Notes under the pieces: generated by a model
Seen by the model: the letters and a program-made list of their open reading frames with translations, nothing else
Databases searched by the model: none
What the model was told of the DNA's origin: nothing
From: Draconibacterium sediminis
GTDB taxonomy: Bacteria > Bacteroidota > Bacteroidia > Bacteroidales > Prolixibacteraceae
Direction: 5' to 3'
Length of the DNA: 64,000 nt
Assembly (NCBI RefSeq): GCF_000949475.1
Contig: NZ_JRHC01000006.1
Location: forward strand, 124,001 to 188,000
Translations under genes and position numbers: made by a program
In this document: one piece after another, positions 397-19,678 of the stretch
Numbering within the stretch: position 1 is the stretch's first letter
Layout of the letters: every line of letters begins with the position of its first letter

Positions 397-431
397 GAAT
401 CACCCTTCGGGGTGATTCTTTAGGGTGATTC
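397..431 (-). promoter_or_regulatory. Three-half-site operator array, copy 1
   Basis: On the plus strand the half-sites are GAATCACCC (397-405), GGGTGATTC (410-418) and GGGTGATTC (423-431), each separated by 4 bases. In the direction of transcription they read as two direct copies followed by one inverted copy, on a strict 13-base period. The array sits about 75-110 bases upstream of the ATG at 321. Near-identical arrays precede the other two transcription units of the region. The proximal half-site would fall at about -33 to -41, as expected for an activator contacting RNA polymerase. The likely binders are the tandem LuxR-type regulators at 7880-13234; that link is inferred. Confidence 0.8.
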
Positions 432-479
432 AAAAGCTTTAAAGCCTACCCAAGAGAAGATTCGTCTCCCAAAAAGCGT

Positions 480-1523
480 TTACTCCTCATTCCATTCTGC
501 CCAATTATTCACTATTTCATGGGCAACAAACCCGCCTACCCGGTATGCATTTTCAACGGCAATTGGAAATCCAACCCATGTATCATTAATACAATCGCTT
601 GCATTTTCACCCGGGTATTGTTGATCAAAATCACTCGCAGTTCGAAGTGCCATCACCCTGTCAAAAGAAATAAGATTAGTCTCTGAAAGTCTTTTTAGTG
701 CTGTAACAATACCACTGTCTTCCATGTTGGTTACATAGTATGTTCCCTGTCCATTAGTCCATTTCTTAACCCACCAATCTGCCCACTCGCTATAAACTTT
801 CCCATAGAAAAAAGTATTGCCGGCAACATTATCTCCAATTGTAACAAAAGGCTCTCTTCGTGCAGCAGAATTAGCTGGAAACCTGTTTCTGATTTCTTGA
901 GCCTCCTGAATATCAAATAATTCAACGTTTTTTGTTATTTCATATGCTTTTTTCACCAGTGATGAATTTAACTGGGTAACTTCTGTTCCGATAGTCCAGC
1001 CATTTTCACACCAAACCTCTTTACAGCCAAGTCGGAATCTGGAAAAATCCCAATTATCAGGCAATTCTTTGGCATCAATAACATGACACAAATCAGCATC
1101 CAAAATCCATTCCGACCATACAGCTGAACCAAGTGTGCAAACTTGGGGTGAAGTGCCGGCAATACCGGCTACAATGAAATAGGTATTTGAAAGATCCAGT
1201 TTAGGATTTAATCCCAATGCCATAACAGACGCGGTAGCATTAGCCAATCCACCTCCGGTAATTATTAAACCTTCTCCATTATCGTTATAATACAAAGGAG
1301 AATAAGCTCCCGGTATTTCCATCTCATTTACAAGGCTGTCTCTCTGATACCAAAGTTGGGCTTCTCCTATACCATCATCAGTAAGATCTCCCATTTCCAT
1401 CATGGTAATTATTATGACTTTAAAAGAAGTCCTTTGGGCACTAGCTGTATTAAAATGAATTAGAGATAAGATGGTAAAAATGATCACAAATCTTTTGTAA
1501 GTTATGTAGTCAAACATATCCAT
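480..1523 (-). CDS. Purine nucleoside permease (NUP) family protein
   Basis: 347 residues. An N-terminal hydrophobic signal sequence (about residues 10-30, ending NTASAQ) suggests export to the periplasm. The body matches the NUP/COG5042 family, related in fold to nucleoside phosphorylases: 'VIIITMMEMGD' near residue 37, 'LIITGGGLANATASVMALGL' near residues 86-105, and 'YFIVAGIAG' near residue 115. Family members are reported to bind or transport purine nucleosides; the substrate here is unknown. It is the last gene of the eleven-gene operon starting at 7769, and follows the preceding gene by 27 bases. No hairpin terminator is clear after the stop. The array downstream at 397-431 belongs to the next unit. 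Confidence 0.75.
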   Translation of the reverse strand: MDMFDYITYKRFVIIFTILSLIHFNTASAQRTSFKVIIITMMEMGDLTDDGIGEAQLWYQRDSLVNEMEIPGAYSPLYYNDNGEGLIITGGGLANATASVMALGLNPKLDLSNTYFIVAGIAGTSPQVCTLGSAVWSEWILDADLCHVIDAKELPDNWDFSRFRLGCKEVWCENGWTIGTEVTQLNSSLVKKAYEITKNVELFDIQEAQEIRNRFPANSAARREPFVTIGDNVAGNTFFYGKVYSEWADWWVKKWTNGQGTYYVTNMEDSGIVTALKRLSETNLISFDRVMALRTASDFDQQYPGENASDCINDTWVGFPIAVENAYRVGGFVAHEIVNNWAEWNEE

Positions 1524-1550
1524 ATTGCTATTATTTATATTCGAAGGTCA

Positions 1551-2288
1551 TCACCAACTTGCACCTTTAAAGTAATTAGGATCAAAGATTTTGGCTTTCA
1601 ACTTTTGAGGGAAAGCAATATCGAAGTATTCTTCTTTCATTATGGGATTTCCATTTTTAAAAAATACCACCTCTGTTGCTATGTATTTACCATTTATCAT
1701 TCTGTAATTATCAAAAATGGCTTCATCATATCGACCATGATTGTTATTTATCATTTTTATAAAAACAAGCCTTTCTTTATCGACATAAAACCTTGGGCTA
1801 TCATCATTATCATCAGACGCACCTACACAGTACACTGATTTCCCATTTAACGAAGTTTCATACAACCGGGAAATATCATAACCTTTTTTCGTGAGCTTAT
1901 CAATGGTAAGTTTAACTGGTTGTACATACACATCGAAACCCAGTACCATTAGATCATGAATATCCTCTATTTTATTCTGAACCTGATTATTATTTATGAT
2001 GTAAATACTGTCATTTCGAAACACATAACCATCTCCACTGTCGAAACTGTCAAACTTAATTATCAATTGATTTGGAGATCGATAAGCCTCATGCCACACT
2101 GTTTTGTTAACGACAGAACCGTTTTGATATTCAAATACATATTGAGAAAAAGTTAGGTTCCTGACGAATGACTCAGCATACTTTTCTTTCATTAACACAA
2201 TTACATCTTCACCTGTTCTCACTGGTTTTTCGCCAAAGCTCAACATACTGATACAAATTAGTAGTATAATGGTAGATACTGTTTTCAT
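1551..2288 (-). CDS. Exported protein, possibly LolA/LolB-like
   Basis: 245 residues with a clear N-terminal signal peptide (MKTVSTIILLICISMLSFG). The mature part begins with 'TGEDVIVLMKEKYAESFVRNLTFSQ', the kind of opening seen in outer-membrane lipoprotein carrier-like proteins. It continues with beta-rich segments such as 'FRNDSIYIINNN' and 'RFYVDKERLVFIKMINNN', which would suit a half-barrel lipid-binding fold. I do not recognise the exact family; the LolA-like reading is inference from pattern. It is the tenth gene of the operon, 31 bases after the DUF2938 membrane protein and 27 bases before the NUP protein, so it may act in the periplasm with them. Confidence 0.65.
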   Translation of the reverse strand: MKTVSTIILLICISMLSFGEKPVRTGEDVIVLMKEKYAESFVRNLTFSQYVFEYQNGSVVNKTVWHEAYRSPNQLIIKFDSFDSGDGYVFRNDSIYIINNNQVQNKIEDIHDLMVLGFDVYVQPVKLTIDKLTKKGYDISRLYETSLNGKSVYCVGASDDNDDSPRFYVDKERLVFIKMINNNHGRYDEAIFDNYRMINGKYIATEVVFFKNGNPIMKEEYFDIAFPQKLKAKIFDPNYFKGASW

Positions 2289-2319
2289 TTTTAATTATTG
2301 GGTTAGAATTTAATAATAA

Positions 2320-2808
2320 TCAGGGGAATAGCGGTTTAATGAGGATCATCCACAACAAAATACCTAAGCCAAAAACAGTGTGGTTTGTTATGTTGGTACG
2401 AATAATCTTCGATCTCTGTTCAGATTTAGCCGCAACAAATCCCATGTTGATACTTGGCAAAAGCCAAAACCATGGAAAAATTACAGTTACAAAACCATAG
2501 AATATTGGCAACCAAAATTGGTTTTTCATCCAAGGGAATTTTAATTCCATCCCAAAATAGAATCCGGTTAAAACGATACCTATTAAATAATGCGATATAA
2601 AACACCATAATTTTTCATTTTTTAACGGAGGTGTTGTAGTAATATTCTGGTGAAAATATTTTCCCTTAAACAAATATAGAAACCATCGCCCAAGTTCATT
2701 TTGAGTAATAAATGGATGTATAATTTTTCTTTTAGCAAGGAAGCTGGCACATAAATCCATTATTATTGTTGCAAAAGTCCCTGAAAGTATTATTTGAGCT
2801 ATAAGCAT
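2320..2808 (-). CDS. DUF2938 family integral membrane protein
   Basis: 162 residues with about four transmembrane segments, near residues 3-24, 68-90, 97-125 and 143-160. It has the conserved features I associate with DUF2938: an N-terminal 'GTFATIIMDL', a 'GRWFLYLFKGKYFHQNI' loop near residue 40, a central 'HYLIGIVLTGFYF', and a C-terminal 'NHTVFGLGILLW'. The molecular function of the family is not established. It follows the methyltransferase gene by only 6 bases, so the two are very likely cotranscribed and perhaps translationally linked. Nothing in it looks truncated. Confidence 0.8.
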   Translation of the reverse strand: MLIAQIILSGTFATIIMDLCASFLAKRKIIHPFITQNELGRWFLYLFKGKYFHQNITTTPPLKNEKLWCFISHYLIGIVLTGFYFGMELKFPWMKNQFWLPIFYGFVTVIFPWFWLLPSINMGFVAAKSEQRSKIIRTNITNHTVFGLGILLWMILIKPLFP

Positions 2809-2814
2809 AACATT

Positions 2815-3654
2815 CTATTTCAATAGCTTACAAAAAGTTACATTTTCTCCACTCCACAAATTATCATCTGCAGGTAGTACATTTTCATTAAATTCAATAC
2901 CAGTAAAATCAAATGGTTTCAAAAGACGAATTAAATCTTCATGCGAAAAGTAGTGCGTCCAAAAACGGTAAACGCTGGTTTTTTCATCTTCAGCCACAAC
3001 ATGCTGGTTAAGTATTACTTTTTCCTTTTCATAAAAAAAGGATTCAGAAAGGGTTATATAAGGTTTATCGCGCCAGAATCCCTGTTCTGCAACTTCCCAG
3101 TTTTTCGGACTTACTTTTTTATCCAATTCTCTGTCATTTAAAACATCAAATATCAAAGTGCCACCGGGTTTTAGGGCTTTTTCTATTTTGCCAAGAAGTT
3201 TGTTTCGATCATCCGGCAACAGTACCCCTAAGTCGGTGTAAATCATTAATACCAAATCAAAATCATTTTCCGGCAATTCCAGATCCAGATAGTTTTTATT
3301 AATGTATTCAATATCCAGGTTCCTTGATTTAGCCTGTTCGATTGCATAGTCAATCGAATTTTTTGAGATATCAACTCCTGAAACCTTATGACCTTTTTGA
3401 GCAATCTGCTGTGTATATAATCCAGGACCACAACCTAAATCGAGGATTTTTAATTTTTTATCCTCTACCTGTTCAAAAATCCAATGAATAGTTTTTTCAA
3501 TGGTTGCCTTTTTTCTGCTTGCCAAATCAATATCGGGATGCAGGTGAATTTCGAGCAATTGTCTTGAAATATGCGGATCGGTCCACATAAATGCATTGCC
3601 AGGATTATAAATCTCGGGTTGTTGGCTATATTTTATAATATCTGTAATTTTCAT
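2815..3654 (-). CDS. Class I SAM-dependent methyltransferase
   Basis: 279 residues. The SAM-binding motif I is 'ILDLGCGPGLYTQQIAQKG' at about residues 70-88, followed by the acidic end of strand beta-2 in 'VSGVDISKNSIDYA'. Motif 'FDLVLMIYTDLGVLLPDDR' and post-motif 'LKPGGTLIFDVLN' follow in the normal order. An N-terminal region with 'FMWTDPHISRQLLEIHLHP' precedes the Rossmann core and may contribute to substrate binding. It is soluble and probably cytoplasmic. It is the eighth gene of the operon, separated by one base from the membrane protein before it and 6 bases from DUF2938 after it. The acceptor (small molecule or protein) cannot be told from sequence. It is not a close copy of the methyltransferase at 17928. 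Confidence 0.85.
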   Translation of the reverse strand: MKITDIIKYSQQPEIYNPGNAFMWTDPHISRQLLEIHLHPDIDLASRKKATIEKTIHWIFEQVEDKKLKILDLGCGPGLYTQQIAQKGHKVSGVDISKNSIDYAIEQAKSRNLDIEYINKNYLDLELPENDFDLVLMIYTDLGVLLPDDRNKLLGKIEKALKPGGTLIFDVLNDRELDKKVSPKNWEVAEQGFWRDKPYITLSESFFYEKEKVILNQHVVAEDEKTSVYRFWTHYFSHEDLIRLLKPFDFTGIEFNENVLPADDNLWSGENVTFCKLLK

Positions 3655-3655
3655 T

Positions 3656-4069: not shown

Positions 4070-4091
4070 TTCTGTTCATCTTGTAAAAACG

Positions 4092-4763: not shown

Positions 4764-4784
4764 TTTGTTTTCTGTTTAAAAAAT

Positions 4785-5855: not shown

Positions 5856-5885
5856 GTTTCTTGTTTTCGTTTTCCTAAAAATTTT

Positions 5886-6077: not shown

Positions 6078-6095
6078 GGCTTAAATTTTAGTCGT

Positions 6096-6956
6096 TTAAT
6101 TGTTTTCTGTTTTTATGCCTTCAAAAAAGTTTTTAAGCTTATGATCTCCATACCAGGGGGCAACCATATCCATTGCAAGAACAGTGAAGAAAAATTCCAT
6201 CGGACCGTAAGTTTTCTGAGATGTGAATGTTCTGGCGAACCATAATATCGTTTTTCTCATCCATTCGGGCATGTAGCTAATTTTTGGTTTTTTCCCGAGC
6301 GTATCGAATGCCATATTTACAATTTCGTTATGCGTGAGAATTTCAGGACCACCGGCTTCAATTTCTATTTCATTCGTCTCAATGGCATCAACACATATTT
6401 TGGCCAAATCGGCACCGTGTATAGGATTCATTTTAAAATTTCCATCGCCAAAAAGTTCGGCTTTTCCTTTTTTTGCCATTTTTAGGAATTCGCTCATGTC
6501 TGAGAAAAAGCCATTTGGCCGCACAATACAATAGCCGATACCCGATTCCTTGAGCTTTTTAACAAACATTTCTTTAGCTTCACACATTTTCAGATGTGTT
6601 AATTTGTCGGCATTAAATGCTGACACATAAATGAACTTTTTTACTCCGCTTTCAATTGCTTCTTCCAATAAATTCAAATTGGCCCGGTAATCAACATCCA
6701 TATAGGTCAGTCCATCCTTTTGTTTGGTAATTCCGACAGTACTAATAACAACATCCGCATTTGGCATGCATTCAATAATACTCATCGGATTAGTTACCTC
6801 TGCTTCTATTACATCAAATTTATCCTGATCAAAACCGGCTTTCTCCTTGTTCCGGACAATTAAACAGGTGTTATATTCCCGGGCCGTTAATTCTTCGGCT
6901 ATGTATCTTCCCAAATACCCTGTAGCTCCTGCCAGTACTATATTTTTTGCTTTCAT
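6096..6956 (-). CDS. NAD(P)-binding NmrA/SDR-type oxidoreductase
   Basis: 286 residues of the atypical short-chain dehydrogenase group. The dinucleotide-binding motif 'VLAGATGYLGRYIAEEL' (GxxGxxG at residues 10-16) opens the protein. 'PNADVVISTVGITKQ' and 'VKKFIYVSAFNADKL' follow, as in NmrA-like proteins and NADH-ubiquinone A9-subunit relatives. The classical YxxxK active site is not obvious, which is common in this group. The C-terminal part contains 'WMRKTILWFARTF', possibly membrane-associating. It follows the nitroreductase gene by one base. With that enzyme it gives the operon two nicotinamide/flavin redox proteins, which suggests reduction of an organic substrate; this is inference. 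Confidence 0.85.
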   Translation of the reverse strand: MKAKNIVLAGATGYLGRYIAEELTAREYNTCLIVRNKEKAGFDQDKFDVIEAEVTNPMSIIECMPNADVVISTVGITKQKDGLTYMDVDYRANLNLLEEAIESGVKKFIYVSAFNADKLTHLKMCEAKEMFVKKLKESGIGYCIVRPNGFFSDMSEFLKMAKKGKAELFGDGNFKMNPIHGADLAKICVDAIETNEIEIEAGGPEILTHNEIVNMAFDTLGKKPKISYMPEWMRKTILWFARTFTSQKTYGPMEFFFTVLAMDMVAPWYGDHKLKNFFEGIKTENN

Positions 6957-6957
6957 T

Positions 6958-7557
6958 TTATTCGATTACATTCAAAATGTGAGGTTTTTTTCTTGGGTGA
7001 ATTGCGGGAATTTTTTTAGGATATCCCAATGCAAGAGGTGCAACTATTTTTAGGTTCGCTGGTATTCCTAGTTCATTTCGTAATTCAGGATTACTAATTG
7101 CCGTGGCAAAATTCACCCAGCATGTTCCTAATCCTTTCGATGTTGCTAAAAACATAAAATAGCAAGCAGCTAACGAACAGTCGGCAACCAGGTTTTTAAC
7201 ATTCGTTTCCCCCATAATAAAAACCACAGCAGGCGCGTGATAGAAAATATGGAAAGATTCATTTTGAAGCATCTTTTCATATTTTTTAGCAGGATCGCCA
7301 GGATTCGCAGCAATACGTTTGATGAAATTCTGCCTGCACTCATCAGATATCCGGTCGAGCATTGCTTTGTTGCTTACAACCAGATACTTCCATGGCTGCT
7401 CATTGCCGGCACTTGGCGCCAAAGTACTATCTTTTATTATGCTTCGTATTGTAACCAACGAAACAGGTTTATCCTGGTAGTTTCTAATAGATCTTCGGTT
7501 TTGTAATATTTCATCTAGCATCATTTGTCCGTGATTTTTTTTGATTTTTGAAATCAT
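6958..7557 (-). CDS. Nitroreductase family flavoprotein
   Basis: 199 residues. The FMN-binding N-terminal motif 'RRSIRNYQDKPV' (residues 21-32) and 'LAPSAGNEQPWKYLVV' near residue 46 are typical. The middle 'DCSLAACYFMFLATSKGLGTCWV' and the C-terminal 'VAPLALGYPKKIP' complete the family signature. Such enzymes reduce nitro groups, quinones, flavins or enoates with NAD(P)H. The start at 7557 overlaps the stop codon of the 70-residue protein by one base (TAATG), which supports this start and implies coupled translation. An internal Met-Met at residues 12-13 is an alternative start. It is the second gene of the operon. Confidence 0.9.
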   Translation of the reverse strand: MISKIKKNHGQMMLDEILQNRRSIRNYQDKPVSLVTIRSIIKDSTLAPSAGNEQPWKYLVVSNKAMLDRISDECRQNFIKRIAANPGDPAKKYEKMLQNESFHIFYHAPAVVFIMGETNVKNLVADCSLAACYFMFLATSKGLGTCWVNFATAISNPELRNELGIPANLKIVAPLALGYPKKIPAIHPRKKPHILNVIE

Positions 7558-7769
7558 TATTTGCCGGGACTCTCCGTTTTTTCTACTGAAATAAGTTTCA
7601 GATTTAAATCTCTGATCTTGTTCAGAATTCCGTAAATAAATGCTTCGTCTCGTGCATCTCCGCGCAAAATGGTGTAATCGCCTTTAGTTGTGATATCCAA
7701 ACCATCAAACCATTCTTTCCACGATGAATCGAGATGTCCTTTGATTTTTATTTTAATTGTACCATTCAT
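7557..7769 (-). CDS. Small conserved protein leading the eleven-gene operon
   Basis: 70 residues from the ATG at 7769. The open frame extends upstream to 7883, but that would run across the operator and the promoter, so the shorter start is chosen. The core reads 'IKGHLDSSWKEWFDG', then 'GDYTILRGDARDEAFIYGI' and 'LNKIRDLNLKLISVEK'. From memory this matches a widespread 70-80-residue unnamed family (GHL...W..WF.G ... D.A.L.G.L..IRDL.L.L.SV) often found beside MalT-like LuxR regulators. Its function is unknown; the size suggests a binding or regulatory role rather than catalysis. Its stop overlaps the nitroreductase start. It is the first gene after operator copy 2 and directly downstream of the regulator genes. 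Confidence 0.8.
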   Translation of the reverse strand: MNGTIKIKIKGHLDSSWKEWFDGLDITTKGDYTILRGDARDEAFIYGILNKIRDLNLKLISVEKTESPGK

Positions 7770-7794
7770 TTTAAATTGCTTTGAATCAACACAA

Positions 7795-7802
7795 CAAAGG
7801 TC
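7795..7802 (-). promoter_or_regulatory. -7-like promoter box of the eleven-gene operon
   Basis: The minus-strand octamer GACCTTTG lies 25 bases upstream of the ATG at 7769 and exactly 19 bases downstream of operator copy 2. It is identical to the box before the gene at 1-321 and differs from TAnnTTTG only in its first base. A start site about 7 bases further down would leave a leader of under 20 bases. Confidence 0.6.
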
Positions 7803-7821: not shown

Positions 7822-7856
7822 AAATCACCCTTTTGGGTGATTTCAGAGGGTGATTT
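7822..7856 (-). promoter_or_regulatory. Three-half-site operator array, copy 2
   Basis: Half-sites on the plus strand are AAATCACCC (7822-7830), GGGTGATTT (7835-7843) and GGGTGATTT (7848-7856), separated by TTTT and CAGA, on the same 13-base period as copy 1. The spacers differ between copies while the half-sites are kept, which argues for protein binding rather than chance or a terminator. The array lies 23 bases after the stop of the second regulator gene and about 55-90 bases before the start of the operon's first gene. Confidence 0.85.
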
Positions 7857-10564: not shown

Positions 10565-13234
10565 TTAGACAATCCCAAGTTCTTTCGCCTTTTCTACAGC
10601 TTTTGTTCTACTATCCACTTCGAGTTTGAGATTAATGTTTTTCAAGTGGCTTTTTACGGTATTCAAAGAAATAAACAAATCGTCGGCAATTTGCTGGTTG
10701 GAGTATTCTTTGGCTAATAGTTTAAGTGTATCTAATTCACGGGCACTTAAAACATTTTCCGTTGCAGCTTTACTTGTTTTCTTTTCATTTTCAAAAGCTT
10801 CAATAAGAACATTCAAATAGCTGGAAGACACTGCATCTAGTTTTTCTGTCGAACTAACTTTCTTTCTTTGTCCTATTTCCCTTAATAAGGACTCAATTTC
10901 TGCCCCTTCATTGATATAAATTCTATTAAAATGATCAGATTGGGTACATTTTAAACAATTCAAAACAGAAATTATAGCCTCTTCCCTTTTATTTGCAAGC
11001 AATAACGATTTTGCCATTAAGAGTTTTACTTCTGCTAATAATTCAAAAGCGTCATGACTTTTCAACCCCTTCTTTAGGTCGGTTAGCAACAAGATGGATT
11101 CGCTATAATTTTTCTGTGAGATACTATAACGAGCAATGGCTACATTATAAAAATAGTTCTCAAAATTGTGGTTTTTAGTTGTTTCCTTTCTACGGTTAAG
11201 GATTGTGAGAGCCTTTTCGTCTTCACCAAGCAAAATCAGCAAATTGCATTTTAAGGAATTGGCCAAAACATAAAGCCATTGCGCAATATCCTGATTAACG
11301 ATCTTTTCAAGCTCTTCAATTAACGACAAAGCTTTATTGAATTCTCCAGACTTGTAATATGTCTCTGCCAGCAATAAAGCATTGTAAGCTTGAAACGACA
11401 GACTTAAAACTCCTCTTGAAAGATTATAACCTTTACGGGCATTTTTAATTCCTTCCTCAGTTTTTCCCTGCTCGGCCTGAATATATCCAATTATGGAATA
11501 AAGTATTGACGATAACAGGCCAATCCGGTATTCTTCGATTTTTGAATCGGCATTAAATGTTTCAAGAAGATTATTACATAGTTCGAGTGATTTAGTATAC
11601 TCCCCTTTTACTTTTAATACATACGCAGTTTTAGAGGTTGCTATTAAATTCAGGTACAGGTTATCTACTTTTTGAGCCTTTTCTCTTGCAATTTTAAATG
11701 AGCTGATGCTTTTGTTCAATTCAAACCGAAGCAAATTCGATTCTCCGTATGAAATATGAGCCCACGAATTCCATAAAACATCATTTGTTTCAATATTTTC
11801 AATAGCAAGTTTTGAGTACCTGAATGCGGCTTCAACATCGCCCGAAAAGACTTTTAAAAGGTTATACGTTTCATACAATCTTCCCAACAGTTTATTCCTG
11901 GCGCCGTTAGATTTATCGGTTTTTATACTGGTTTGTAATTTATCCAGAAATACCTCGGCTACATCTAATTTACCCATTATAATGAGTACCCAGGCGTAGG
12001 CAATCCCAAATTTACCACTTGAGATAATTTCATTTTCATTCAGGTGCTGTGTAAATTTCAGAATAATTGTATACTGCGATGTTTCCCATAAACTATCAAC
12101 TTCGTTATCAATTAATTGCAGTGCCTTTTCAGAACTTCCGGCTTTTAGTGTATGCTCAATGGCAAATAAGGAAAATCCTTTTGCTTCATACCATAAGCCA
12201 GCTTTTTTATGCAATTCTGGTATTTGTTCTTTATGCTTGATTTGCAGTCGTTGTTTTAATAAATCGCCAAAAAGATGATGGTAACGAAACCACTTGCGTT
12301 CATCATCGAGCGGAACAATAAACATGTTACATTTTTCAAGCGATTCAAGTAATTGCTGGCTATTGTTTTTGTCGAGTATTGCATCGCATAGCGAGCCTGA
12401 GAATTGATCCAGTACCGAGGTTTTTAACAGAAAGTCTCGCGTCTCATTATCCAGTGTATTCAGGACTTCCTCAATCAGGTAATCCATAATATACCTGCTG
12501 TCTCCGGCAATACTTTTCAGGTATTCCGAAATATTATCTTTATTCTGAAGTGTAATTGCAGTTAATTGTAACCCGGCAATCCAACCTTCGGTTTTTAGTT
12601 CTACAAGGCTAATGTCATTCCGGGTAAGCCCGAGCTTTAATTTCCGGTTAAAAAAATCGGTAATATCGTGCTCGTTAAAGCTTAAATCAGCAGACCGAAT
12701 TTCCATAAGTTCATTCTGACTTCTCAGCCGTGCCAATGAAATTGGAGGATCAGAGCGAGTTAACAGCGCAATTTTAAAGTTTTGAGGTTTGTACTCAATG
12801 ATAAAACTTAAGGTCTTAAATATCTCTGAGCGGTTAATTAAATGTAAGTCGTCAATAACAAGCAGAAACTCTTTTTCAACAGAAAGTATGTCATTTATAA
12901 GCAGTTCGATAATATACTTTATTTCTGCAGTGCCCGGAGATTTTAATAAATTAAGTGATTTGCCCCCAATGTTTTCATTAACTGTTTGGATGCTGTTAAT
13001 CATTAAGCTCAGAAATTCAAAGGGATCATTATCGCGGCTATCCACCGAGTACCAGGCAGTTGGTATTTTGTTTTGAATTATCCAATCGCTAACAAGCGTA
13101 GTTTTTCCATAACCTGCTGTGGCGGAAACAAGAATTAATCTACGGTTCAATCCTTCATTTAATTTTTCAAATAAAGCTGATCGGTGAACCACATGCTCTT
13201 TGGGTTGCGGAATATGTAGTTTAGTTAGTAGCAT
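10565..13234 (-). CDS. MalT-like STAND/LuxR transcriptional regulator A
   Basis: 889 residues, exactly the length of its downstream paralogue. Walker A is 'TAGYGKTT' (39-46), Walker B 'EFLLVIDDLHLI' near residue 125, then 'EGWIAGLQL', a TPR-like middle, and a C-terminal GerE helix-turn-helix with recognition segment 'QQIADDLFISLNTVKSHL'. The first about 50 and last about 60 residues differ from the paralogue at only a few positions, whereas the sensor region is clearly diverged. The two proteins should therefore recognise the same DNA but different signals. The gene lies 106 bases downstream of the Ntn-hydrolase gene, and a weak promoter may lie in that gap. No operator array is present upstream of it. 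Confidence 0.92.
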   Translation of the reverse strand: MLLTKLHIPQPKEHVVHRSALFEKLNEGLNRRLILVSATAGYGKTTLVSDWIIQNKIPTAWYSVDSRDNDPFEFLSLMINSIQTVNENIGGKSLNLLKSPGTAEIKYIIELLINDILSVEKEFLLVIDDLHLINRSEIFKTLSFIIEYKPQNFKIALLTRSDPPISLARLRSQNELMEIRSADLSFNEHDITDFFNRKLKLGLTRNDISLVELKTEGWIAGLQLTAITLQNKDNISEYLKSIAGDSRYIMDYLIEEVLNTLDNETRDFLLKTSVLDQFSGSLCDAILDKNNSQQLLESLEKCNMFIVPLDDERKWFRYHHLFGDLLKQRLQIKHKEQIPELHKKAGLWYEAKGFSLFAIEHTLKAGSSEKALQLIDNEVDSLWETSQYTIILKFTQHLNENEIISSGKFGIAYAWVLIIMGKLDVAEVFLDKLQTSIKTDKSNGARNKLLGRLYETYNLLKVFSGDVEAAFRYSKLAIENIETNDVLWNSWAHISYGESNLLRFELNKSISSFKIAREKAQKVDNLYLNLIATSKTAYVLKVKGEYTKSLELCNNLLETFNADSKIEEYRIGLLSSILYSIIGYIQAEQGKTEEGIKNARKGYNLSRGVLSLSFQAYNALLLAETYYKSGEFNKALSLIEELEKIVNQDIAQWLYVLANSLKCNLLILLGEDEKALTILNRRKETTKNHNFENYFYNVAIARYSISQKNYSESILLLTDLKKGLKSHDAFELLAEVKLLMAKSLLLANKREEAIISVLNCLKCTQSDHFNRIYINEGAEIESLLREIGQRKKVSSTEKLDAVSSSYLNVLIEAFENEKKTSKAATENVLSARELDTLKLLAKEYSNQQIADDLFISLNTVKSHLKNINLKLEVDSRTKAVEKAKELGIV

Positions 13235-13272: not shown

Positions 13273-13280
13273 TAAAGATA
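13273..13280 (-). promoter_or_regulatory. Possible -7 box for the regulator pair
   Basis: On the minus strand the octamer TATCTTTA matches TAnnTTTG except in the last base. It lies about 40 bases upstream of the ATG at 13234, in the 106-base gap after the Ntn-hydrolase gene. No operator half-site is nearby and no well-spaced -33 element is seen, so this is only a candidate for independent expression of the regulators. Confidence 0.25.
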
Positions 13281-13340
13281 CTACTTCCATAAAAAAATTG
13301 AAAACTGATCAAAACTCACAATTGCAAATAATTAACACTA

Positions 13341-14333
13341 TTACGAATTCCATTTTTTTATGGAACTGTCATAACTGGCTATTTCCTCTTTTCCAAGAAT
13401 ACTATTAATGAACTCGGACTTATCACAGATTGAATTTATTATTTCGCTATTAATAGCGTGGTTATATATCACCCAATTATTTTTAACATTCGGGTTTTTA
13501 TTAATGTCAATCGTTCTACTTGTGTAATAAGTAAAATCATAATCTTTTACATTCATTGTTCTTACTTTTTTACTTGAGTTAGTTATGTAATAGATTTTCA
13601 TGTTTTTAATGTCATAAACTATCTTCCATTGCGTGTTATTACTCACTGCATCAAGAATCGAAAAACTATAGTCTATTTCATTCTGCCCTTCATATTTTTC
13701 AACTAATTCCTTGGCGATATTGTATCTCTCCAATGAATTCGCCACATCAGTTGGGTAATTATTTTTACCGATATCTTTAATATGCTCATTTTGATTCAAT
13801 GAATTTTCAATTGTGTTATTTGATAAGACTCCATCTAAGCGTGGATTATTTTTATACACAAGCATCTTTCCATTAATAAATTCAAATATAGCGCTGTCTC
13901 CATTTCTATCCATTGTATTAAAATGAATGGGGAATTTAAAATCTACATTAGAAATTCGCACCTCTGTGCAGGATTTTATTATTTCATTAACGGATTTACA
14001 CGAATCAAGCATATACTGAATCCACTGGTGAGAAATTAAAGCAGGTCTTTCATCAGGTTGCTCATAAACTGATTCTTCCAAAAACAGGTGTTCCACAACC
14101 AAGCCTTTTTCATTCATCCCGCCATGTGGAATATCCTTACTTATCTGATTAAAAGTAATACTTCCAAACTTTGACCTCCAAACCGCAGGAGTTTCGTTAC
14201 ATTTTCGACTAATATAAGCTGTCTTTTTTACCTCGCGAGGATTAATAAATACTGTCCCAATGTCAGTTTCTACATCCAAATTTCGGCCAAATATTAATTC
14301 TGAATCGGTTTTAATTGTGAAGCTTGTACACAT
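13341..14333 (-). CDS. Linear amide C-N hydrolase (choloylglycine hydrolase family)
   Basis: 330 residues starting Met-Cys, so removal of Met exposes Cys2 as the N-terminal nucleophile of an Ntn hydrolase. 'FGRNLD' gives Arg17 and Asp20, the positions expected near the nucleophile. 'HGGMNEKGLVVEHLFL', 'HFNTMDRNGDSAIFEF' and 'LSNNTIENSL' (a conserved Asn) follow in the family order. Relatives cleave conjugated bile salts, penicillin V or N-acyl homoserine lactones; the substrate here cannot be told. There is no signal peptide, so it would act in the cytoplasm. It is the last gene of the seven-gene operon, 42 bases after an exported alpha/beta hydrolase gene. Confidence 0.88.
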   Translation of the reverse strand: MCTSFTIKTDSELIFGRNLDVETDIGTVFINPREVKKTAYISRKCNETPAVWRSKFGSITFNQISKDIPHGGMNEKGLVVEHLFLEESVYEQPDERPALISHQWIQYMLDSCKSVNEIIKSCTEVRISNVDFKFPIHFNTMDRNGDSAIFEFINGKMLVYKNNPRLDGVLSNNTIENSLNQNEHIKDIGKNNYPTDVANSLERYNIAKELVEKYEGQNEIDYSFSILDAVSNNTQWKIVYDIKNMKIYYITNSSKKVRTMNVKDYDFTYYTSRTIDINKNPNVKNNWVIYNHAINSEIINSICDKSEFINSILGKEEIASYDSSIKKWNS

Positions 14334-14375
14334 ACATAAAGCATTTTTATTAATAAATATTGGTTGCTTTCAAAA

Positions 14376-15314
14376 CTACGAAGGGTTTGTTTTCCTTTTA
14401 TTTTTTATTAAAAATTGAATTATCTCCTGTTCAAACCTCTCTAGAATAGTACAATTGAAAAGAACGTGTCCCATTTTAGGAATAAGTACCAACTTAGAAT
14501 TGGGTATACACGCTGCAGTTTGAATTCCTCCGAATTTGTGCACAAGATAATCTTCTTCGCCATGAATAATTAGCGCCGGTATTTTTACCTCTTGTAGTTG
14601 TTCTGTTCTGTCGGTAAGATTTGCCTGTGCTTTAACATGCGAGTCACCAATAGCCCCAATAATATCCTGACGATCATACAGGTTTTTGGTGTATTCAACA
14701 GCCAGTTTTTTATCAAACTCGGCAGTTCCATTCAAGTATTTCCATACTTTCAGAAAACCTTGCAGGTCATTATTAAAATTATTGGTCGGATTGTTTTCCA
14801 TAAATATTTCCCAAGTTTTAGGTGGTGGCGGTGGGATATTACCGGAATTTGTTGAAGCTGAAGCTGAAGTCATGGAAATAATCCTGTCGGGATAATGAAT
14901 TGCCAATAGCTGAACTATAAAACCACCCATCGAATGACCTACAACATGTGCCTTTGTAACCGAAAGCGAATCCAATATTGTTATGGCATCTTTGGTAAGT
15001 TGCATAACGTCAAAGGGATTTTTTTCGTAATCAACTTTCGTTGAATAACCAAAATCGCGATGGTCGTATTTTATCACACAAAAGTTTCTGTTGGCGAGGT
15101 TTTTGCAAAGCTTATCCGACCAAAATGATGAATTAGCGCCGGCTCCTGAAATAAATAGAATGGCTTCGTTCGAGTCATCACCGTAGGTTTCCACCCATAA
15201 TCTCAGGTTTGGTTCAATTTGTATAAATCCCGTTTGCTTTTTCATCCCATAGCTATTTGAATAAAACGAAAATGTCAATATTAAAAATGCAATGATGCAA
15301 TTCGCTTGTTTCAC
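14376..15314 (-). CDS. Exported alpha/beta hydrolase
   Basis: 312 residues with a signal peptide (residues 1-23, ending 'SNSYG'). 'ILFISGAGANSSFW' is the oxyanion region, 'YDHRDFGYST' follows strand beta-4, 'VVGHSMGGF' holds the nucleophile Ser128, and 'PKMGHVLF' near residue 285 gives the catalytic His. The start codon is GTG at 15314, which overlaps the stop of the preceding hydrolase gene (GTGA). That overlap and the complete signal peptide favour GTG over the ATG at residue 24. It is probably periplasmic and could be an esterase, lactonase or haloperoxidase-like enzyme; the substrate is unknown. Confidence 0.85.
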   Translation of the reverse strand: MKQANCIIAFLILTFSFYSNSYGMKKQTGFIQIEPNLRLWVETYGDDSNEAILFISGAGANSSFWSDKLCKNLANRNFCVIKYDHRDFGYSTKVDYEKNPFDVMQLTKDAITILDSLSVTKAHVVGHSMGGFIVQLLAIHYPDRIISMTSASASTNSGNIPPPPPKTWEIFMENNPTNNFNNDLQGFLKVWKYLNGTAEFDKKLAVEYTKNLYDRQDIIGAIGDSHVKAQANLTDRTEQLQEVKIPALIIHGEEDYLVHKFGGIQTAACIPNSKLVLIPKMGHVLFNCTILERFEQEIIQFLIKNKRKTNPS

Positions 15315-16066
15315 ATTTTTTTAGCTATAAATTCACTTGCAATTTTGAAAAATTCTTCATGATTCGAGAACATAGCCGGATGATTGCCTTTCTCAAAAAT
15401 ATGAATCTTAAGAGCTGTATTTTTGTCCTTTAATCCCTCGAAAATCTTATCCAGATGATTACAATATTCATCTTCCAAACTTCCTGTGAGCAATGTTGGC
15501 ACATCAAGTTCCGAAATCGATTTATGGAAAAAAGAGTTACCGGTTTTTGCAAATTCGATGTTTACATTGGTGTCCATATCAACCACTTTTTCCCAATCCG
15601 TTCCGTGCATATCTTTCCAGAAAAACTGAGCTTCTTCAATCTTTTTGTCTCTTTCTCTGTCTTCTCTTATGGTTTTTACAAAGGTTTCTAAAGATGATTC
15701 TCCTTCAAAACTATCAGCTACCAAAAATTTGACTTTATCCGGATGTTCGAGCGCCAGGTTAATCCCAACCAATGCCCCGCCGCTGGTGCCAATTACATTT
15801 ACATTTTTTAGATTTAATTCCTCCAGCAAGGCGTTTGACACCTTTGAATTGTAATACCAGAAATCCGTTTCAAACTTCTCCAACCGGGAAGATTTACCGT
15901 GCCCCGGAAAATCAAAAAGTATTACTTTGTAATTATCAGCATATAGTTTTATTATGGGATGAAACATGCGGGATGAAACACTATTTCCATGAATCAATAA
16001 AAGTGGCTCACCTTCTCCAAAAATTTCATAAAAAACTTTACCATTTTCAAATTTATAGAAAGGCAT
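15311..16066 (-). CDS. Cytoplasmic alpha/beta hydrolase
   Basis: 251 residues without a signal peptide. 'PLLLIHGNSVSSRMF' (residues 21-35) is the oxyanion loop and 'FDFPGHGKSSR' follows. 'VIGTSGGALVG' places the nucleophile at Ser95. The conserved C-terminal His is in 'EKGNHPAMF'. The cap region is short. It overlaps the next gene by four bases, so the two hydrolases are translationally coupled and may act in sequence on either side of the inner membrane. It lies 45 bases after the LCM-type methyltransferase gene. The substrate is unknown. Confidence 0.87.
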   Translation of the reverse strand: MPFYKFENGKVFYEIFGEGEPLLLIHGNSVSSRMFHPIIKLYADNYKVILFDFPGHGKSSRLEKFETDFWYYNSKVSNALLEELNLKNVNVIGTSGGALVGINLALEHPDKVKFLVADSFEGESSLETFVKTIREDRERDKKIEEAQFFWKDMHGTDWEKVVDMDTNVNIEFAKTGNSFFHKSISELDVPTLLTGSLEDEYCNHLDKIFEGLKDKNTALKIHIFEKGNHPAMFSNHEEFFKIASEFIAKKM

Positions 16067-16111
16067 ACTTAGAATTATTTAATGAATTGATTTTTGAGTC
16101 AAGATTTAAAA

Positions 16112-16942
16112 TTAATTGCTTTTAAGTTTATAATGAACTGTCCATTGTATTTTCCTGAAAGCATCTTTATTTCTAAAAAAAATCCTAAATGGAATGTTGG
16201 CTTCTTCTTCATCAAGGTACGACCAGTCCTTAATATACTTGTAATTCGTATCCCATGTTTCAATTTCATTACTATCGGTAATCCCAAATTTGAATAACGT
16301 TTCTTCCCCAAGTTTGAGCTCTTTTTTCATTTTTATGGCCATCATTTTTCCGCGCCACCCAGCAAGCCATTTCGTGTTAAAGACTTCGAAAACAACTTCC
16401 GGATTGGTAAACTTTCTTTGAAGTTCGCCAAACAGAGCTTTCACATCAGCCAATTCACAATACATGAAAACTCCTTCTGCCATCAAAAAAACGTGTTCTC
16501 TGTCTATTTCGTTTATCCAGTCGAATTCGAAAACCGACTGAGAAAATTGGCTGTAACGTTTAGTTGGCGCAATAATATTTTCTTTGATGTTAATAATATC
16601 AGGGAGATCCAGGTCGTAAAAAAGGATTTTCCCATTATCGATTCTTTTGAACCGGTTATCCATTCCGCACCCAATATTTACAATCGCAGCATCAGGATGT
16701 TTTTCAATAAAACTTTTAGCAAATAAATCATACTGCCGGGCACGAAGTGCGATGTGAGTGACCAGACTCTTTTTAATTTGGTTTGAGTTAAATCCCGGAA
16801 GTCCGGTTATCTCCTTTAACGCCTCCAATGTGTCTAAAGAATTCCTGTCATTTAATATGGAATGCCTGGAGTTTGCATCTAAAGCATGACATTGCAATGT
16901 TAGAAATGCGGTTTGAGAAATTTGTCCGATTTTTGCAGTCAT
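16112..16942 (-). CDS. Leucine-carboxyl-methyltransferase-like O-methyltransferase
   Basis: 276 residues of the COG3315/LCM group of SAM methyltransferases. 'AAIVNIGCGMDNRFKRID' (about residues 85-102) is the unusual motif I with GCGMDNR, 'LFYDLDLPDII' is the acidic strand, and 'VFLMAEGVFMYCELADVKALF' is the family's post-motif. Relatives methylate carboxyl or hydroxyl groups, including in polyketide pathways. The acceptor here is unknown. It is soluble and cytoplasmic. It is the fourth gene of the seven-gene operon, 3 bases after the membrane-anchored hydrolase gene. Confidence 0.85.
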   Translation of the reverse strand: MTAKIGQISQTAFLTLQCHALDANSRHSILNDRNSLDTLEALKEITGLPGFNSNQIKKSLVTHIALRARQYDLFAKSFIEKHPDAAIVNIGCGMDNRFKRIDNGKILFYDLDLPDIINIKENIIAPTKRYSQFSQSVFEFDWINEIDREHVFLMAEGVFMYCELADVKALFGELQRKFTNPEVVFEVFNTKWLAGWRGKMMAIKMKKELKLGEETLFKFGITDSNEIETWDTNYKYIKDWSYLDEEEANIPFRIFFRNKDAFRKIQWTVHYKLKSN

Positions 16943-16945
16943 TTT

Positions 16946-17905
16946 TTAATCATTTTTCGGTAGCTCAGTCAACGTTTTGTTTGTGTTTACAAGAGGTAGC
17001 GGAATAAATGCAACCAAATCGTCTAGATATTCAGCGCTCACTTTATTTGTGACAGGATCGCTAATGGCATGACCACCCTTTGGATAAACCTTTACAAGGA
17101 AATTATTGAGATTGTTAACTTTTAGTTTCTCCTTGCATTTTTCAACAGGAACATTTCTGTCATCGCCTCCAAATCCAATAAATACAGGGACATGTATTTG
17201 TTGCCAATACGGAATAGGATCAAAACCAACCAATGCTTTCTGATGGGGCATTTTGCTGATCCTTTTGGAAGTAAGCGGAGCAAGAGCCTTTGCAATAAAT
17301 CGATAAGTATAAGGTTCGATATTATTAATTTCTTCGTATACCAATTGTTCGTCGGTTGTAACCGTTGCCCCTGACATGGTTGCCACAAAATCAATATTTG
17401 CGGATTTAGTTGCGGCAACCGGGGCGATCCATCCCCCCTGGCTCATCCCCAAAACTCCAATTTCAGAATAGTCAAAAGTATTCTGCCCTTTTACATATTC
17501 AACAGCTGCTAAAACATCACTTGCTAATTGGTTAAAATCAGCTCCAATCCATTCTCCTTCCGATTTCTCACATCCTCTTTTATCGGGAAGCACAACGGCA
17601 ATTCCATTATTTGTTAAATGCTTTGCCACCGATAAATACCAAACACTGTTTCTAAAACTAGGTCCTGATCCGTGGATAAAAACAACCACGGGAAATGACC
17701 CGTCGCCTTCAGGTAGCATCAGCATTCCGGCCAGTTTTAGACTATCTGCTTTGTTCTTGAATGTAATTTCGGAGTATTCTATTTCTGAAAGATCCGGTCC
17801 GGTTAACATCCTTTGCGGCTTGTTTTTAAATGCCAGCGGTAAAATTAGAAATACTATTAATCCCAGGGTTACAATTAGTAAAGTTCGTCTCTTTTTTAGT
17901 TTCAT
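16946..17905 (-). CDS. Membrane-anchored alpha/beta hydrolase (BAAT/dienelactone type)
   Basis: 319 residues. A basic N-terminus followed by a hydrophobic stretch (residues 8-25) anchors it in the inner membrane or acts as an uncleaved signal. 'FPVVVFIHGSGPSFRN' gives the oxyanion loop near residue 75 and 'VVLPDKRGCEKSEGEW' follows. 'GVLGMSQGGWIAPV' carries the nucleophile Ser155, and 'YPKGGHAI' the catalytic His. Such proteins are usually acyl or ester hydrolases. It is the third gene in its operon, 22 bases after the methyltransferase gene and 3 bases before the next methyltransferase gene. Confidence 0.85.
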   Translation of the reverse strand: MKLKKRRTLLIVTLGLIVFLILPLAFKNKPQRMLTGPDLSEIEYSEITFKNKADSLKLAGMLMLPEGDGSFPVVVFIHGSGPSFRNSVWYLSVAKHLTNNGIAVVLPDKRGCEKSEGEWIGADFNQLASDVLAAVEYVKGQNTFDYSEIGVLGMSQGGWIAPVAATKSANIDFVATMSGATVTTDEQLVYEEINNIEPYTYRFIAKALAPLTSKRISKMPHQKALVGFDPIPYWQQIHVPVFIGFGGDDRNVPVEKCKEKLKVNNLNNFLVKVYPKGGHAISDPVTNKVSAEYLDDLVAFIPLPLVNTNKTLTELPKND

Positions 17906-17927
17906 GTTTTCTGTTGTTTTTATTCTT

Positions 17928-18572
17928 CTAATCTTTTATCGATGTGATATAAAATGCTTTGGACTTCTTGCCCAACATCACACTTTTGGAAATTTCAAAA
18001 CCATTCTTCACAAGCAGACTCTCAATACTTTTTTTGGTGGTTTTTTCTTTTAATGCTTCATCAGATGGTTTCCCAAAAGTTTTTATGTAGCGAATTCCTA
18101 CGGCCATCCGGCTAAAGAAATTCATATCATCTATAGCAAAAGAGGTTATTATCAGATATCCACCGCTTTTTAATACCCGCTTACTTTCCTGAATCACCTT
18201 TTCTGCATTCCCAATTATGTGAATCAGGTTAGCCATAAAAACCGTGTCAAAGCTTTCATTTTCAAAATCAAGATTCAAGGCATTGGCTCTTTTGAATTCC
18301 ACTTTTTGCAGGTTTCCTCTTTTTTGCTTTGCAGTGGCAACCATGTCATCGGAGAAATCCGTGGCAACAACAATCTTTGAATTTTTCAAAAGGATTTCGG
18401 TATACAATCCGGTTCCGCAACCCAGTTCCAGAGCTTTTCCTAAATCAGATTCTTTCAGCATTTCTTGCCTGGTGAGAGAAAGCAACTCTTTGCCAACTAC
18501 CTTTTGCTGTTTTTCTTCGTAATCTTCCGAAAACCGGCTCCAGTATGTTTCTTTGATTTTCTGTTTCATCAC
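17928..18572 (-). CDS. Class I SAM-dependent methyltransferase (UbiE-like)
   Basis: 214 residues. Motif I 'KALELGCGTGLYTEILLKN' (about residues 46-64), the acidic strand 'VVATDFSDDMVATAK', motif 'FDTVFMANLIHIIGN' and the post-motif 'LKSGGYLIITSF' are in the standard order for methyltransferase domain 11/25 proteins. The N-terminal 'YWSRFSEDYEEKQQKVVG' resembles the lid of UbiE- and BioC-type enzymes. It is cytoplasmic. It is the second gene of the operon, 3 bases after the amidohydrolase gene. The operon thus encodes two methyltransferases of different families, which points to modification of a small molecule. Confidence 0.87.
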   Translation of the reverse strand: MMKQKIKETYWSRFSEDYEEKQQKVVGKELLSLTRQEMLKESDLGKALELGCGTGLYTEILLKNSKIVVATDFSDDMVATAKQKRGNLQKVEFKRANALNLDFENESFDTVFMANLIHIIGNAEKVIQESKRVLKSGGYLIITSFAIDDMNFFSRMAVGIRYIKTFGKPSDEALKEKTTKKSIESLLVKNGFEISKSVMLGKKSKAFYITSIKD

Positions 18573-18575
18573 TCG

Positions 18576-19583
18576 TCATTTATAGTATTTTTCAAGCTCA
18601 GGAAATAATTTCAGGCAGTTTGTAAATGCCATTTTCTCTAATTGGTTATCGTTAAAGTCTCCCTGTTTTAGTAGGTTTTTAGTTACAATTGGTGCCAGTT
18701 TCGAAATGCAAACATCAGTTCCAAAAACGATATGGTCCGGACCGGCAAAATCCTGTAACGTTTTTATGGCATAGTTACCAGAAACATTAGCCGTATCGTA
18801 ATACATTCTTTTCAGGTGTTGAAGTCCTTTGGATGGTTCGCCATTTACTAGAAAATCGTAAAAAGTTCTTATAATTGGTGGCTTTTTATCTTTTTGTCCA
18901 TACTCAATTCCTGCCAATCGCCATGCTATATAGGGAATTGTGCCACCTCCGTGCGATAAAATATACCGAATTTCAGGATACCTGTCAAGCACTCCGCTGT
19001 ACATCATGTTGGCTACAGCACGTGTGGTATCAAAAGGTGCCTCTATTAATGCATTGGGCATACCTAATCCAGAATCGAATTCTACTCCCGGGTCGGTAGG
19101 ATGAATATAAACCACAGCTTTTCGTTTATTCAACTCATTAAAAAATGGTTCAAAAATTTCATCACCCAAATATTTGCCTAAATAATTGGTCATCAAACAA
19201 ACTCCATTTAAATGAAGAGTGTCTAAGGCATAGTTCAATTCAGTTAAAGCCGCGTCTGGATTTAACATAGGGATTGTGGCAAAACCACCAAATTGATCAG
19301 GATAAATGTCTTTCGTTTCTGCTATAATTTCGTTGGTTAAGCGTGCCAAAACTTCAGGAAAATCATCAGGCACTTTTACGTCGGGAAAGTAAACACCCGG
19401 TGTTGAAATGGACAACATGGCAATTTTAACCCCATTTTCTTTCATCTTTTTAAATGAAGTTTCCACTGTCCATTTCGGCAATTTTACACCAATAGATTTT
19501 TCAATTCCTACTTCCTTTAGCGCCTCAACATATTCTTTTGGAAAAATATGGTGATGTACATCAATTTTGTTAGTTGTTTTCAT
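18576..19583 (-). CDS. Metal-dependent amidohydrolase, ACMSD-like
   Basis: 335 residues from the ATG at 19583; the longer frame to 19643 would enter the promoter and operator and lacks family similarity. 'KIDVHHHIFP' gives the metal-binding His10 and His12. 'RYILSHGGGTIPYIAWRL' holds a further metal ligand, and 'HIVFGTDVC' the conserved Asp near the C-terminus. This is the COG2159 group, which includes aminocarboxymuconate-semialdehyde decarboxylase and aromatic-acid decarboxylases. It may therefore decarboxylate or hydrolyse a cyclic acid; the substrate is unknown. It is the first gene of the seven-gene operon and is directly preceded by operator copy 3. Confidence 0.87.
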   Translation of the reverse strand: MKTTNKIDVHHHIFPKEYVEALKEVGIEKSIGVKLPKWTVETSFKKMKENGVKIAMLSISTPGVYFPDVKVPDDFPEVLARLTNEIIAETKDIYPDQFGGFATIPMLNPDAALTELNYALDTLHLNGVCLMTNYLGKYLGDEIFEPFFNELNKRKAVVYIHPTDPGVEFDSGLGMPNALIEAPFDTTRAVANMMYSGVLDRYPEIRYILSHGGGTIPYIAWRLAGIEYGQKDKKPPIIRTFYDFLVNGEPSKGLQHLKRMYYDTANVSGNYAIKTLQDFAGPDHIVFGTDVCISKLAPIVTKNLLKQGDFNDNQLEKMAFTNCLKLFPELEKYYK

Positions 19584-19617
19584 GGTATTGTATCTGTTTT
19601 CCTTAAAAATACTCTTA

Positions 19618-19625
19618 CAAAGTTT
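19618..19625 (-). promoter_or_regulatory. -7-like promoter box of the seven-gene operon
   Basis: The minus-strand octamer AAACTTTG differs from TAnnTTTG in its first base only. It lies 34 bases upstream of the ATG at 19583 and exactly 19 bases downstream of operator copy 3, the same spacing as at the other two promoters. Confidence 0.6.
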
Positions 19626-19644
19626 AAAGAAAAACGGCATCAAA

Positions 19645-19678
19645 GAATCACCCGCATGGGTGATTTTAGGGGTGAATT
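19645..19678 (-). promoter_or_regulatory. Operator array, copy 3, with degenerate third half-site
   Basis: GAATCACCC (19645-19653) and GGGTGATTT (19658-19666) form the inverted pair with spacer GCAT. The third site is GGGTGAATT (19670-19678), one base off consensus in sequence and set at a 3-base rather than 4-base spacing. The inverted pair nearest the promoter is fully kept, which suggests it is the essential part while the distal site adjusts strength. It lies about 60-95 bases upstream of the amidohydrolase start. Confidence 0.8.

What the first reader, a model, noticed from the sequence alone, without database searches (positions are those of the whole stretch)
397..19678. Three copies of a three-half-site operator define a local regulon
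Arrays at 397-431, 7822-7856 and 19645-19678 share the pattern AATCACCC-N4-AATCACCC-N4-GGGTGATT in the direction of transcription, with different spacers. Each stands before a different transcription unit, and I saw no fourth copy within 20 kb. The half-sites are kept while spacers vary, as expected for a protein-binding array. Together they group about 19 genes into one regulon, apparently around the tandem MalT-like regulators. I know of no published description of this operator; that is not a literature search.
Basis: partly seen in the sequence, partly recalled or inferred. Interest (0 to 1): 0.88.

Follow-up and report, generated by a model that had tools for sequence, protein, structure and literature searches.

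The report
MalT-type activator sites before gene clusters
Three matching DNA sites in front of three gene groups look like docking sites for two neighbouring MalT-like switch proteins, a variant of a known kind of gene control that recurs, with matched changes in protein and site, in other bacteria.

Summary
The three arrays are real; their exact core occurs nowhere else in the 6.0 Mb genome. On the transcribed strand they read AATCACCC-N5-AATCACCC-N4-GGGTGATT (array 3: N4, one mismatch), each followed at one fixed distance by a Bacteroidota-like -7 element. Best explanation: MalT-box-type activator sites of the tandem MalT-like (LAL) regulators. A paralogous LAL elsewhere in the genome has three arrays of the same geometry but with half-site GGATGA. 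The promoter distance recurs in 24 of 26 Bacteroidota arrays. Half-site class follows the recognition helix in 25 of 25 classed LALs, but the rule is post hoc and rests on 4 class changes. Corrections: a fourth array precedes a polysaccharide-export operon on another contig, so the regulon is not purely local, and a close published precedent exists (Actinoplanes MalT, PMC7567727). Against: 3 of 5 more distant phylum LAL genomes showed no such array. Array 2 also resembles a terminator. No binding or expression was tested.

The parts
398..430 (-). Array 1: AATCACCC-N5-AATCACCC-N4-GGGTGATT on the - strand
370..377 (-). -7-like element GACCTTTG of array 1 (TTTG at base 26 after GGGTGAT)
1..321 (-). 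Start of a 125-aa gene without Pfam match, the first gene behind array 1; it runs out of the window to the left
7823..7855 (-). Array 2, same layout; its inverted repeat plus T-run (7844-7821) is also terminator-like
7795..7802 (-). -7-like element GACCTTTG of array 2
7557..7769 (-). 70-aa protein P0003, member of a small-protein family that recurs behind LAL-adjacent arrays
6096..7557 (-). Nitroreductase (6958-7557) and NmrA-like (6096-6956) genes, likely in the same unit as P0003
480..5855 (-). Seven further head-to-tail genes (hydrolase, methyltransferase, DUF2938, purine nucleoside permease and others); read-through from array 2 is not shown
7880..10549 (-). MalT-like LAL regulator P0001 (TPR_MalT + GerE; helix NTVK)
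10565..13234 (-). MalT-like LAL regulator P0002 (TPR_MalT + GerE; helix NTVK)
13341..19583 (-). Seven-gene operon behind array 3: amidohydrolase, methyltransferase, alpha/beta hydrolases, LCM-type methyltransferase, choloylglycine-hydrolase-like; first gene probably starts at the ATG ending at 19583
19646..19677 (-). Array 3: ATTCACCC-N4-AATCACCC-N4-GGGTGATT on the - strand
19618..19625 (-). -7-like element AAACTTTG of array 3

Best explanation
The arrays are activator-binding sites of MalT type: two direct half-sites and one inverted half-site with core GGGTGA, a one-base variant of the MalT-box core GGATGA. The tandem LAL regulators P0001 and/or P0002 (MalT-like, with a C-terminal LuxR-type HTH) would bind them as an oligomer when an unknown ligand turns them on. 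The promoter-proximal half-site then lies over the -33/-35 region, one fixed step from a weak -7 element, where the regulator can recruit RNA polymerase. Targets: the operon behind array 3, which may run into the regulator genes themselves; the small-protein/nitroreductase unit behind array 2; the unit left of the window behind array 1; and, in trans, a polysaccharide-export operon behind a fourth array on contig C12. Shown here: array geometry, fixed promoter spacing, association with LAL genes, helix/half-site covariation. Inferred: binding, activation rather than repression, ligand control, operon extents, and which LAL acts where.
For: Three exact cores in 6.0 Mb against 0.0015 expected, all within 20 kb. 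TTTG at base 26 after the array in 24 of 26 Bacteroidota arrays, with 10 spacers mutually under 60% identical; TAnnnT at base 22 in 5 of 7 LAL-adjacent arrays of other phyla. Of 9 close LALs in the genus, 6 have an array directly 3', 1 divergently 5', and 2 lie downstream of array 3 or its G067 ortholog. The C1 paralog (42% identical) has three arrays of the same geometry with GGATGA. Helix class matches half-site class in 25 of 25 classed LALs. In G069 the array stays with its operon although no LAL was found in the 19 kb around it. Distance and box core fit published MalT sites.
Against: No binding, start-site or expression data. Three of five other phylum LAL genomes (G224, G244, G322; 30-36% identity over the matched part) showed no such array in 16-18 kb. 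The helix rule was formed after seeing the data; only 4 independent class changes (sign test p 0.125), quick tree with long branches; L069, counted as GGGTGA, has two TCATCC half-sites. A response-regulator-like gene (L055) sits beside one such array, so the operator is not exclusive to LALs. The composite pattern was drawn partly from arrays already seen in five of the seven small-protein genomes beyond the window's own, and 6 of 133 other genomes match it once each. 2 of 26 Bacteroidota arrays lack the spacing; 4 of 29 non-LAL-adjacent arrays of other phyla also have TAnnnT at 22.
Confidence: 0.85

Rival explanations
1. The inverted repeats are intrinsic terminators or RNA hairpins at the 3' ends of upstream genes.
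For: Array 2 has a 10-pair stem followed by a T-run and is called terminator-like; it lies just 3' of the P0001 stop codon. Many relatives also have the T-run behind the inverted repeat.
Against: Arrays 1 and 3 are not called. It explains neither the third half-site, nor the fixed -7 distance, nor the half-site classes that follow the regulator, nor the array that heads an operon far from any close LAL in G069. A dual role for array 2 remains possible.
Confidence: 0.06
2. The arrays are bound by a regulator of another type (for example a NarL-like response regulator, or an unseen repressor) and the LAL genes are only neighbours.
For: A response-regulator-like gene with helix NTVK stands beside one GGGTGA array (L055). 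All three window arrays would also suit a repressor that overlaps the promoter.
Against: At least 18 of 54 collection stretches have a LAL-type gene ending within 350 nt before the array; half-site and LAL helix change together; two array classes in one genome sit beside two LAL groups.
Confidence: 0.07
3. The arrays are copies of a mobile or REP-like repeat.
For: Palindromic, intergenic, and near-identical in the half-sites.
Against: Only 3 exact cores in 6.0 Mb; spacers differ while half-sites and promoter distance are kept; exact cores in the family only in 3 of 140 genomes, all of which have a close LAL.
Confidence: 0.02

Closest known systems
MalT-regulated large genomic region of Actinoplanes sp. 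SE50/110 (PMC7567727; passages and the Discussion section seen)
   Same: Palindromic site TCATCC-5nt-GGATGA over -35 in 17 promoters; local region of 51 genes unrelated to maltose use; two MalT-like LuxR regulators inside it; motif end 34.4 +/- 1.0 nt from the start site, close to what the -7 spacing implies here.
   Different: Half-site core GGGTGA instead of GGATGA, N4 instead of 5 nt between the inverted half-sites, a third direct half-site, Bacteroidota promoter; there the effect of malT was shown by deletion and overexpression, here nothing was tested.
E. coli / Klebsiella MalT regulon (as described in PMC7567727; title of Vidal-Ingigliardi 1991 seen in the reference list of PMC8265627)
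   Same: LAL regulator (P0002 residues 4-412 match E. coli MalT chain 8bob_C, E 2e-64); repeated boxes, box core GGA(T/G)GA, box over -35.
   Different: One base differs in the window's box; no maltose gene was recognised by Pfam in the window's target units; ligand unknown.
Paralogous LAL and arrays on contig C1 of the same genome (G000:C1:239013-246047)
   Same: Tripartite geometry and TTTG at 26; NmrA-like target gene 67% identical; small protein of the same family.
   Different: Half-site GGATGA, helix TTVK.

Membership tests
MalT-like LAL regulators | N-terminal MalT-like ATPase region, TPR_MalT region and C-terminal LuxR-type HTH | tested here: met
   Pfam TPR_MalT and GerE above cut-off in both proteins; the AAA matches are below cut-off; residues 4-412 of P0002 match E. 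coli MalT, E 2e-64
MalT-type operator | Box core GGA(T/G)GA | tested here: not met
   Window core is GGGTGA, one base off; the C1 paralog's arrays have GGATGA. So 'works like' a MalT site, not a classical MalT box
MalT-type operator | Repeated boxes, including direct repeats | tested here: met
   Two direct and one inverted half-site in each array
MalT-type operator | Box over the -35 region at fixed distance from the start site | tested here: inconclusive
   Fixed distance to the -7-like element in 24 of 26 Bacteroidota arrays; no start site was mapped
E. coli-type MalT regulon | Maltotriose as inducer, ATP-dependent oligomer, activation | not testable with these tools
   needs biochemistry
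E. coli-type MalT regulon | Targets are maltose genes | tested here: not met
   Pfam of the target units shows hydrolases, methyltransferases, nitroreductase and others, none named for maltose use
Intrinsic terminator | GC-rich stem followed by a T-run | tested here: inconclusive
   Called for array 2 only, not for arrays 1 and 3

The most novel reading that the evidence does not exclude
The LAL regulator, its own tripartite array and a 66-89 aa ACT/ferredoxin-like protein form a portable three-part signalling module found in several phyla. Its operator alphabet (GGGTGA, GGATGA, GAGTGA) is set by three residues of the recognition helix, so that two insulated regulons coexist in one genome, and the small protein is a dedicated partner that senses a metabolite for the LAL or feeds back on it.
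Probability: 0.35. Interest if true: 0.7.

Novelty: new variant of a known kind. Interest (0 to 1): 0.52.

Why it matters
LAL regulators occur in many bacteria, yet few have known targets (from general knowledge, not a search). A box-and-promoter geometry that recurs in several phyla gives a way to predict their targets from sequence. The natural GGGTGA, GGATGA and GAGTGA classes with matching helix residues make LuxR-type HTH specificity directly testable. The small protein that often follows the array is a candidate partner of this regulator family without a Pfam or NCBIfam name above cut-off in the searches made.

Tried and rejected
Rfam on the window: no family. Viral contigs: no array. 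Small protein: NCBIfam none; Pfam for P0003 only bDLD3 far below cut-off (E 0.088), and among the 18 members one YscD BON-like hit at E 0.00097 whose cut-off was not displayed; PDB by sequence best E 0.18; Foldseek best E 0.0045 and none at 0.001 or better, generic ferredoxin/ACT-like folds, so fold only and no function. Sigma70 consensus promoters: 66 found against 77 expected, uninformative. The HTH of E. coli MalT was not in the PDB match (420-residue chain), so its helix residue is recalled only and not counted. A first tally of the TTTG offset (22 of 24) mislabelled two Bacteroidota arrays; the corrected count is 24 of 26. The one-residue helix rule (N gives GGGTGA) was rejected because L062 (NTAK) and Thermogemmatispora (NTVR) break it; the three-residue rule was then formed post hoc. 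For the tree I left out three rows (a second piece of P0002 in L017, the response-regulator-like L055, the 102-aa fragment L073), set six LALs without an adjacent array as unclassed, and L110 (G244) gave no helix match and so no row. L015's class came first from an array seen by eye, later matched. Relaxed scan of the own genome: 12 places at up to 2 mismatches, of which 7 are the arrays discussed, 1 is array 3 on the other strand, and 4 look like chance; the control gave 3. Papers: listings only; passages of PMC10427625, PMC8265627 and PMC7366714; passages and the Discussion of PMC7567727.
Full report
Observation. AATCACCC occurs 10 times in the window against 1.9 expected, 8 of them in the arrays. 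The core AATCACCC-N4-GGGTGATT occurs exactly three times in the 5,992,231-base genome, all here, and the backwards-read control gives none; a first-order Markov estimate expects 0.0015. Read on the transcribed - strand, arrays 1 and 2 are AATCACCC-N5-AATCACCC-N4-GGGTGATT (period 13). Array 3 has N4 (period 12) and ATTCACCC as its first half-site.

Genes. The two 889-residue proteins at 7880-10549 and 10565-13234 carry the MalT-like TPR region and a LuxR-type HTH; P0002 residues 4-412 match E. coli MalT (8bob_C, E 2e-64). Array 3 stands before seven head-to-tail genes, mostly hydrolases and methyltransferases, which are followed after about 106 nt, with no called terminator, by the two regulators. 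Array 2 lies between the second regulator and a 70-aa gene followed by nitroreductase and NmrA-like genes. Array 1 stands before a 125-aa gene that ends outside the window.

Promoter geometry. After GGGTGAT, TTTG begins at base 26 in all three arrays, within GACCTTTG, GACCTTTG and AAACTTTG. This resembles the Bacteroidota -7 element TAnnTTTG (PMC7366714, passages only). A scan of the genome collection for ATCAYCC-N4..6-ATCAYCC-N4-GGRTGAT gave 54 stretches; by my own rough arithmetic, not a control scan, about 3 would be expected by chance. Together with the loci of the 140-genome search there are 62 distinct arrays after 7 duplicates were dropped. TTTG starts at exactly base 26 in 24 of 26 Bacteroidota arrays (exceptions L089, L092) and in 0 of 36 others. 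Ten of the spacers are mutually under 60% identical, so this is not only recent copying. Of 7 LAL-adjacent arrays outside Bacteroidota, TAnnnT begins at base 22 in 5 (three of them Thermogemmatispora) and at 23 in 1; among the other 29 arrays it begins at 22 in 4. Base 22 is also where TAnnTTTG would begin. The distance fits the 34.4 +/- 1.0 nt from motif to start site reported for Actinoplanes MalT.

Link to the regulators. At E <= 1e-8 this genome has three full-length matches to P0002 and one HTH-only match: the window pair and one on C1, 42% identical to P0002. The C1 gene has three arrays within about 4.5 kb, of the same geometry but with GGATGA, the MalT-box core. In the genus, 9 LALs in 6 of 37 genomes pass E 1e-150. 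Six have an array directly 3' (P0001, the C1 paralog, one LAL each of G067, G069, G063 and G043; the last three with imperfect or different half-sites, and G063's without TTTG at 26). G035 has one divergently upstream. P0002 and its G067 ortholog have none adjacent but lie downstream of array 3 or its ortholog. Of the 54 stretches, 26 hold a tblastn match to P0001 at E <= 1e-4, and at least 19 have the array within 350 nt 3' of a gene with a LuxR-type HTH, one of them response-regulator-like.

Against. In 395 phylum genomes, 6 have a LAL at E <= 1e-60: the window's own and G224, G244, G311, G322, G358. Arrays were found near G311 and G358 (the latter without TTTG at 26), not near the other three. 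G224 and G322 have helix ATVK. Two collection hits (L053, L091) stand beside what looks like an RNA polymerase gene and are probably coding coincidences.

Family-wide test. The exact core is in 3 of 140 family genomes, and all three have a close LAL. The tripartite GGRTGA pattern is in 4 of 140, including G099, not seen before, which later proved to have the LAL and small protein too. A composite pattern (TCAYYC-N4-GRRTGA-N26-TTTG) is in 13 of 140: all 7 that carry the small protein (18 of 24 places) and 6 of the 133 others, one place each; the backwards-read control found 2 places. The Fisher p of 1e-8 overstates this, because the pattern was drawn partly from arrays already seen in those genomes; the scarcity elsewhere is the informative part. 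A close LAL and the small protein are found in the same 6 of 37 genus genomes (p 4e-7). In the phylum sample the overlap is looser: LAL in 6, small protein in 5, both in 4.

Covariation. Of 25 LALs with a classed array, 16 of 16 with helix NT[V/I]K have GGGTGA, and 9 of 9 with other helices (TTVK, NTAK, NTVR, QTVK, HTIK) have GGATGA or GAGTGA. The tree needs four class changes and four of four independent pairs agree, but four pairs cannot reach significance (p 0.125), the tree is a quick one with long branches, and the rule was made after seeing the data. L069, counted as GGGTGA by its inverted half-site, has two TCATCC direct half-sites.

Not purely local. Adding the -7 element and relaxing the flanks revealed a fourth array, ATCACCC-N5-ATCACCC-N4-GGGTGA with GACCTTTG at the same distance, on contig C12. 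It lies about 400 nt before a polysaccharide-export gene followed by chain-length-type genes, downstream of a NusG-like gene. In G069, array 3 heads the same operon, whose last gene is shortened; no LAL was found within the 19 kb fetched, and the one LAL passing E 1e-150 is 3.5 Mb away. In G067 a different LAL (35% identical to P0001) stands before an identical array 2, beside a remnant of a P0001-like gene; and the ortholog of the gene behind array 1 follows the DUF2938 gene directly, without an array. Arrays thus seem to go with transcription units rather than with regulator 3' ends.

Rivals. Array 2 resembles a terminator and may act as one for the regulator gene; arrays 1 and 3 are not called. 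A pure terminator explains neither the third half-site, nor the fixed -7 distance, nor the half-site classes. A response-regulator-like gene beside one array (L055) shows that the operator may not be exclusive to LALs.

The small protein. Behind many LAL-adjacent arrays lies a 65-89 aa protein (18 aligned; found by inspection). It has no NCBIfam match, no Pfam match above cut-off for P0003, and is predicted with mean pLDDT 86 as a ferredoxin/ACT-like fold. Its function is unknown; that it is a partner of the LAL is a guess from co-occurrence.

Verdict. These are most likely MalT-box-type activator arrays with a variant core and a third half-site, in a Bacteroidota promoter setting. The host family is inferred to be Prolixibacteraceae because contig C65 of G063 and the named record CAJXZG010000065.1 have the same length and arrays (contig length). 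The closest publication seen is PMC7567727. In the searches made (open-licence papers, listings apart from the four opened) I saw no description of the GGGTGA class or of the small protein; that is a limited search.

Noticed in passing
L118 / L130 (G000:C12:455001-472000), array at G000:C12:462338: Fourth tripartite GGGTGA array with GACCTTTG at the same distance, before a polysaccharide-export operon and behind a NusG-like gene; similar short stretches flank it on both sides.
   Followed up: partly
window 7557-7769 and loci of A1: Small protein family (65-89 aa, ferredoxin/ACT-like model) behind LAL-adjacent arrays in Bacteroidota, Neomarinimicrobiota and KSB1 records.
   Followed up: partly
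L055 (Saprospiraceae record), array at 3300-3271: A response-regulator-like gene, not a LAL, stands before a GGGTGA array with TTTG at 26.
   Followed up: no
L009 (G067), 3-599 and 2788-5472: Remnant of a P0001-like gene behind the P0002 ortholog, and a different LAL before the identical array 2; the relative of window gene 2815-3654 matches in two frames there.
   Followed up: no
L058, L087 (Gammaproteobacteria records): Tripartite arrays before similar large membrane-protein-like genes, TAnnnT at base 22, no LAL match in the stretch at E 1e-4.
   Followed up: no
L053, L091 (Synechococcus records): Pattern matches beside what looks like the start of an RNA polymerase beta-prime-type gene; probably coding coincidence.
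   Followed up: no
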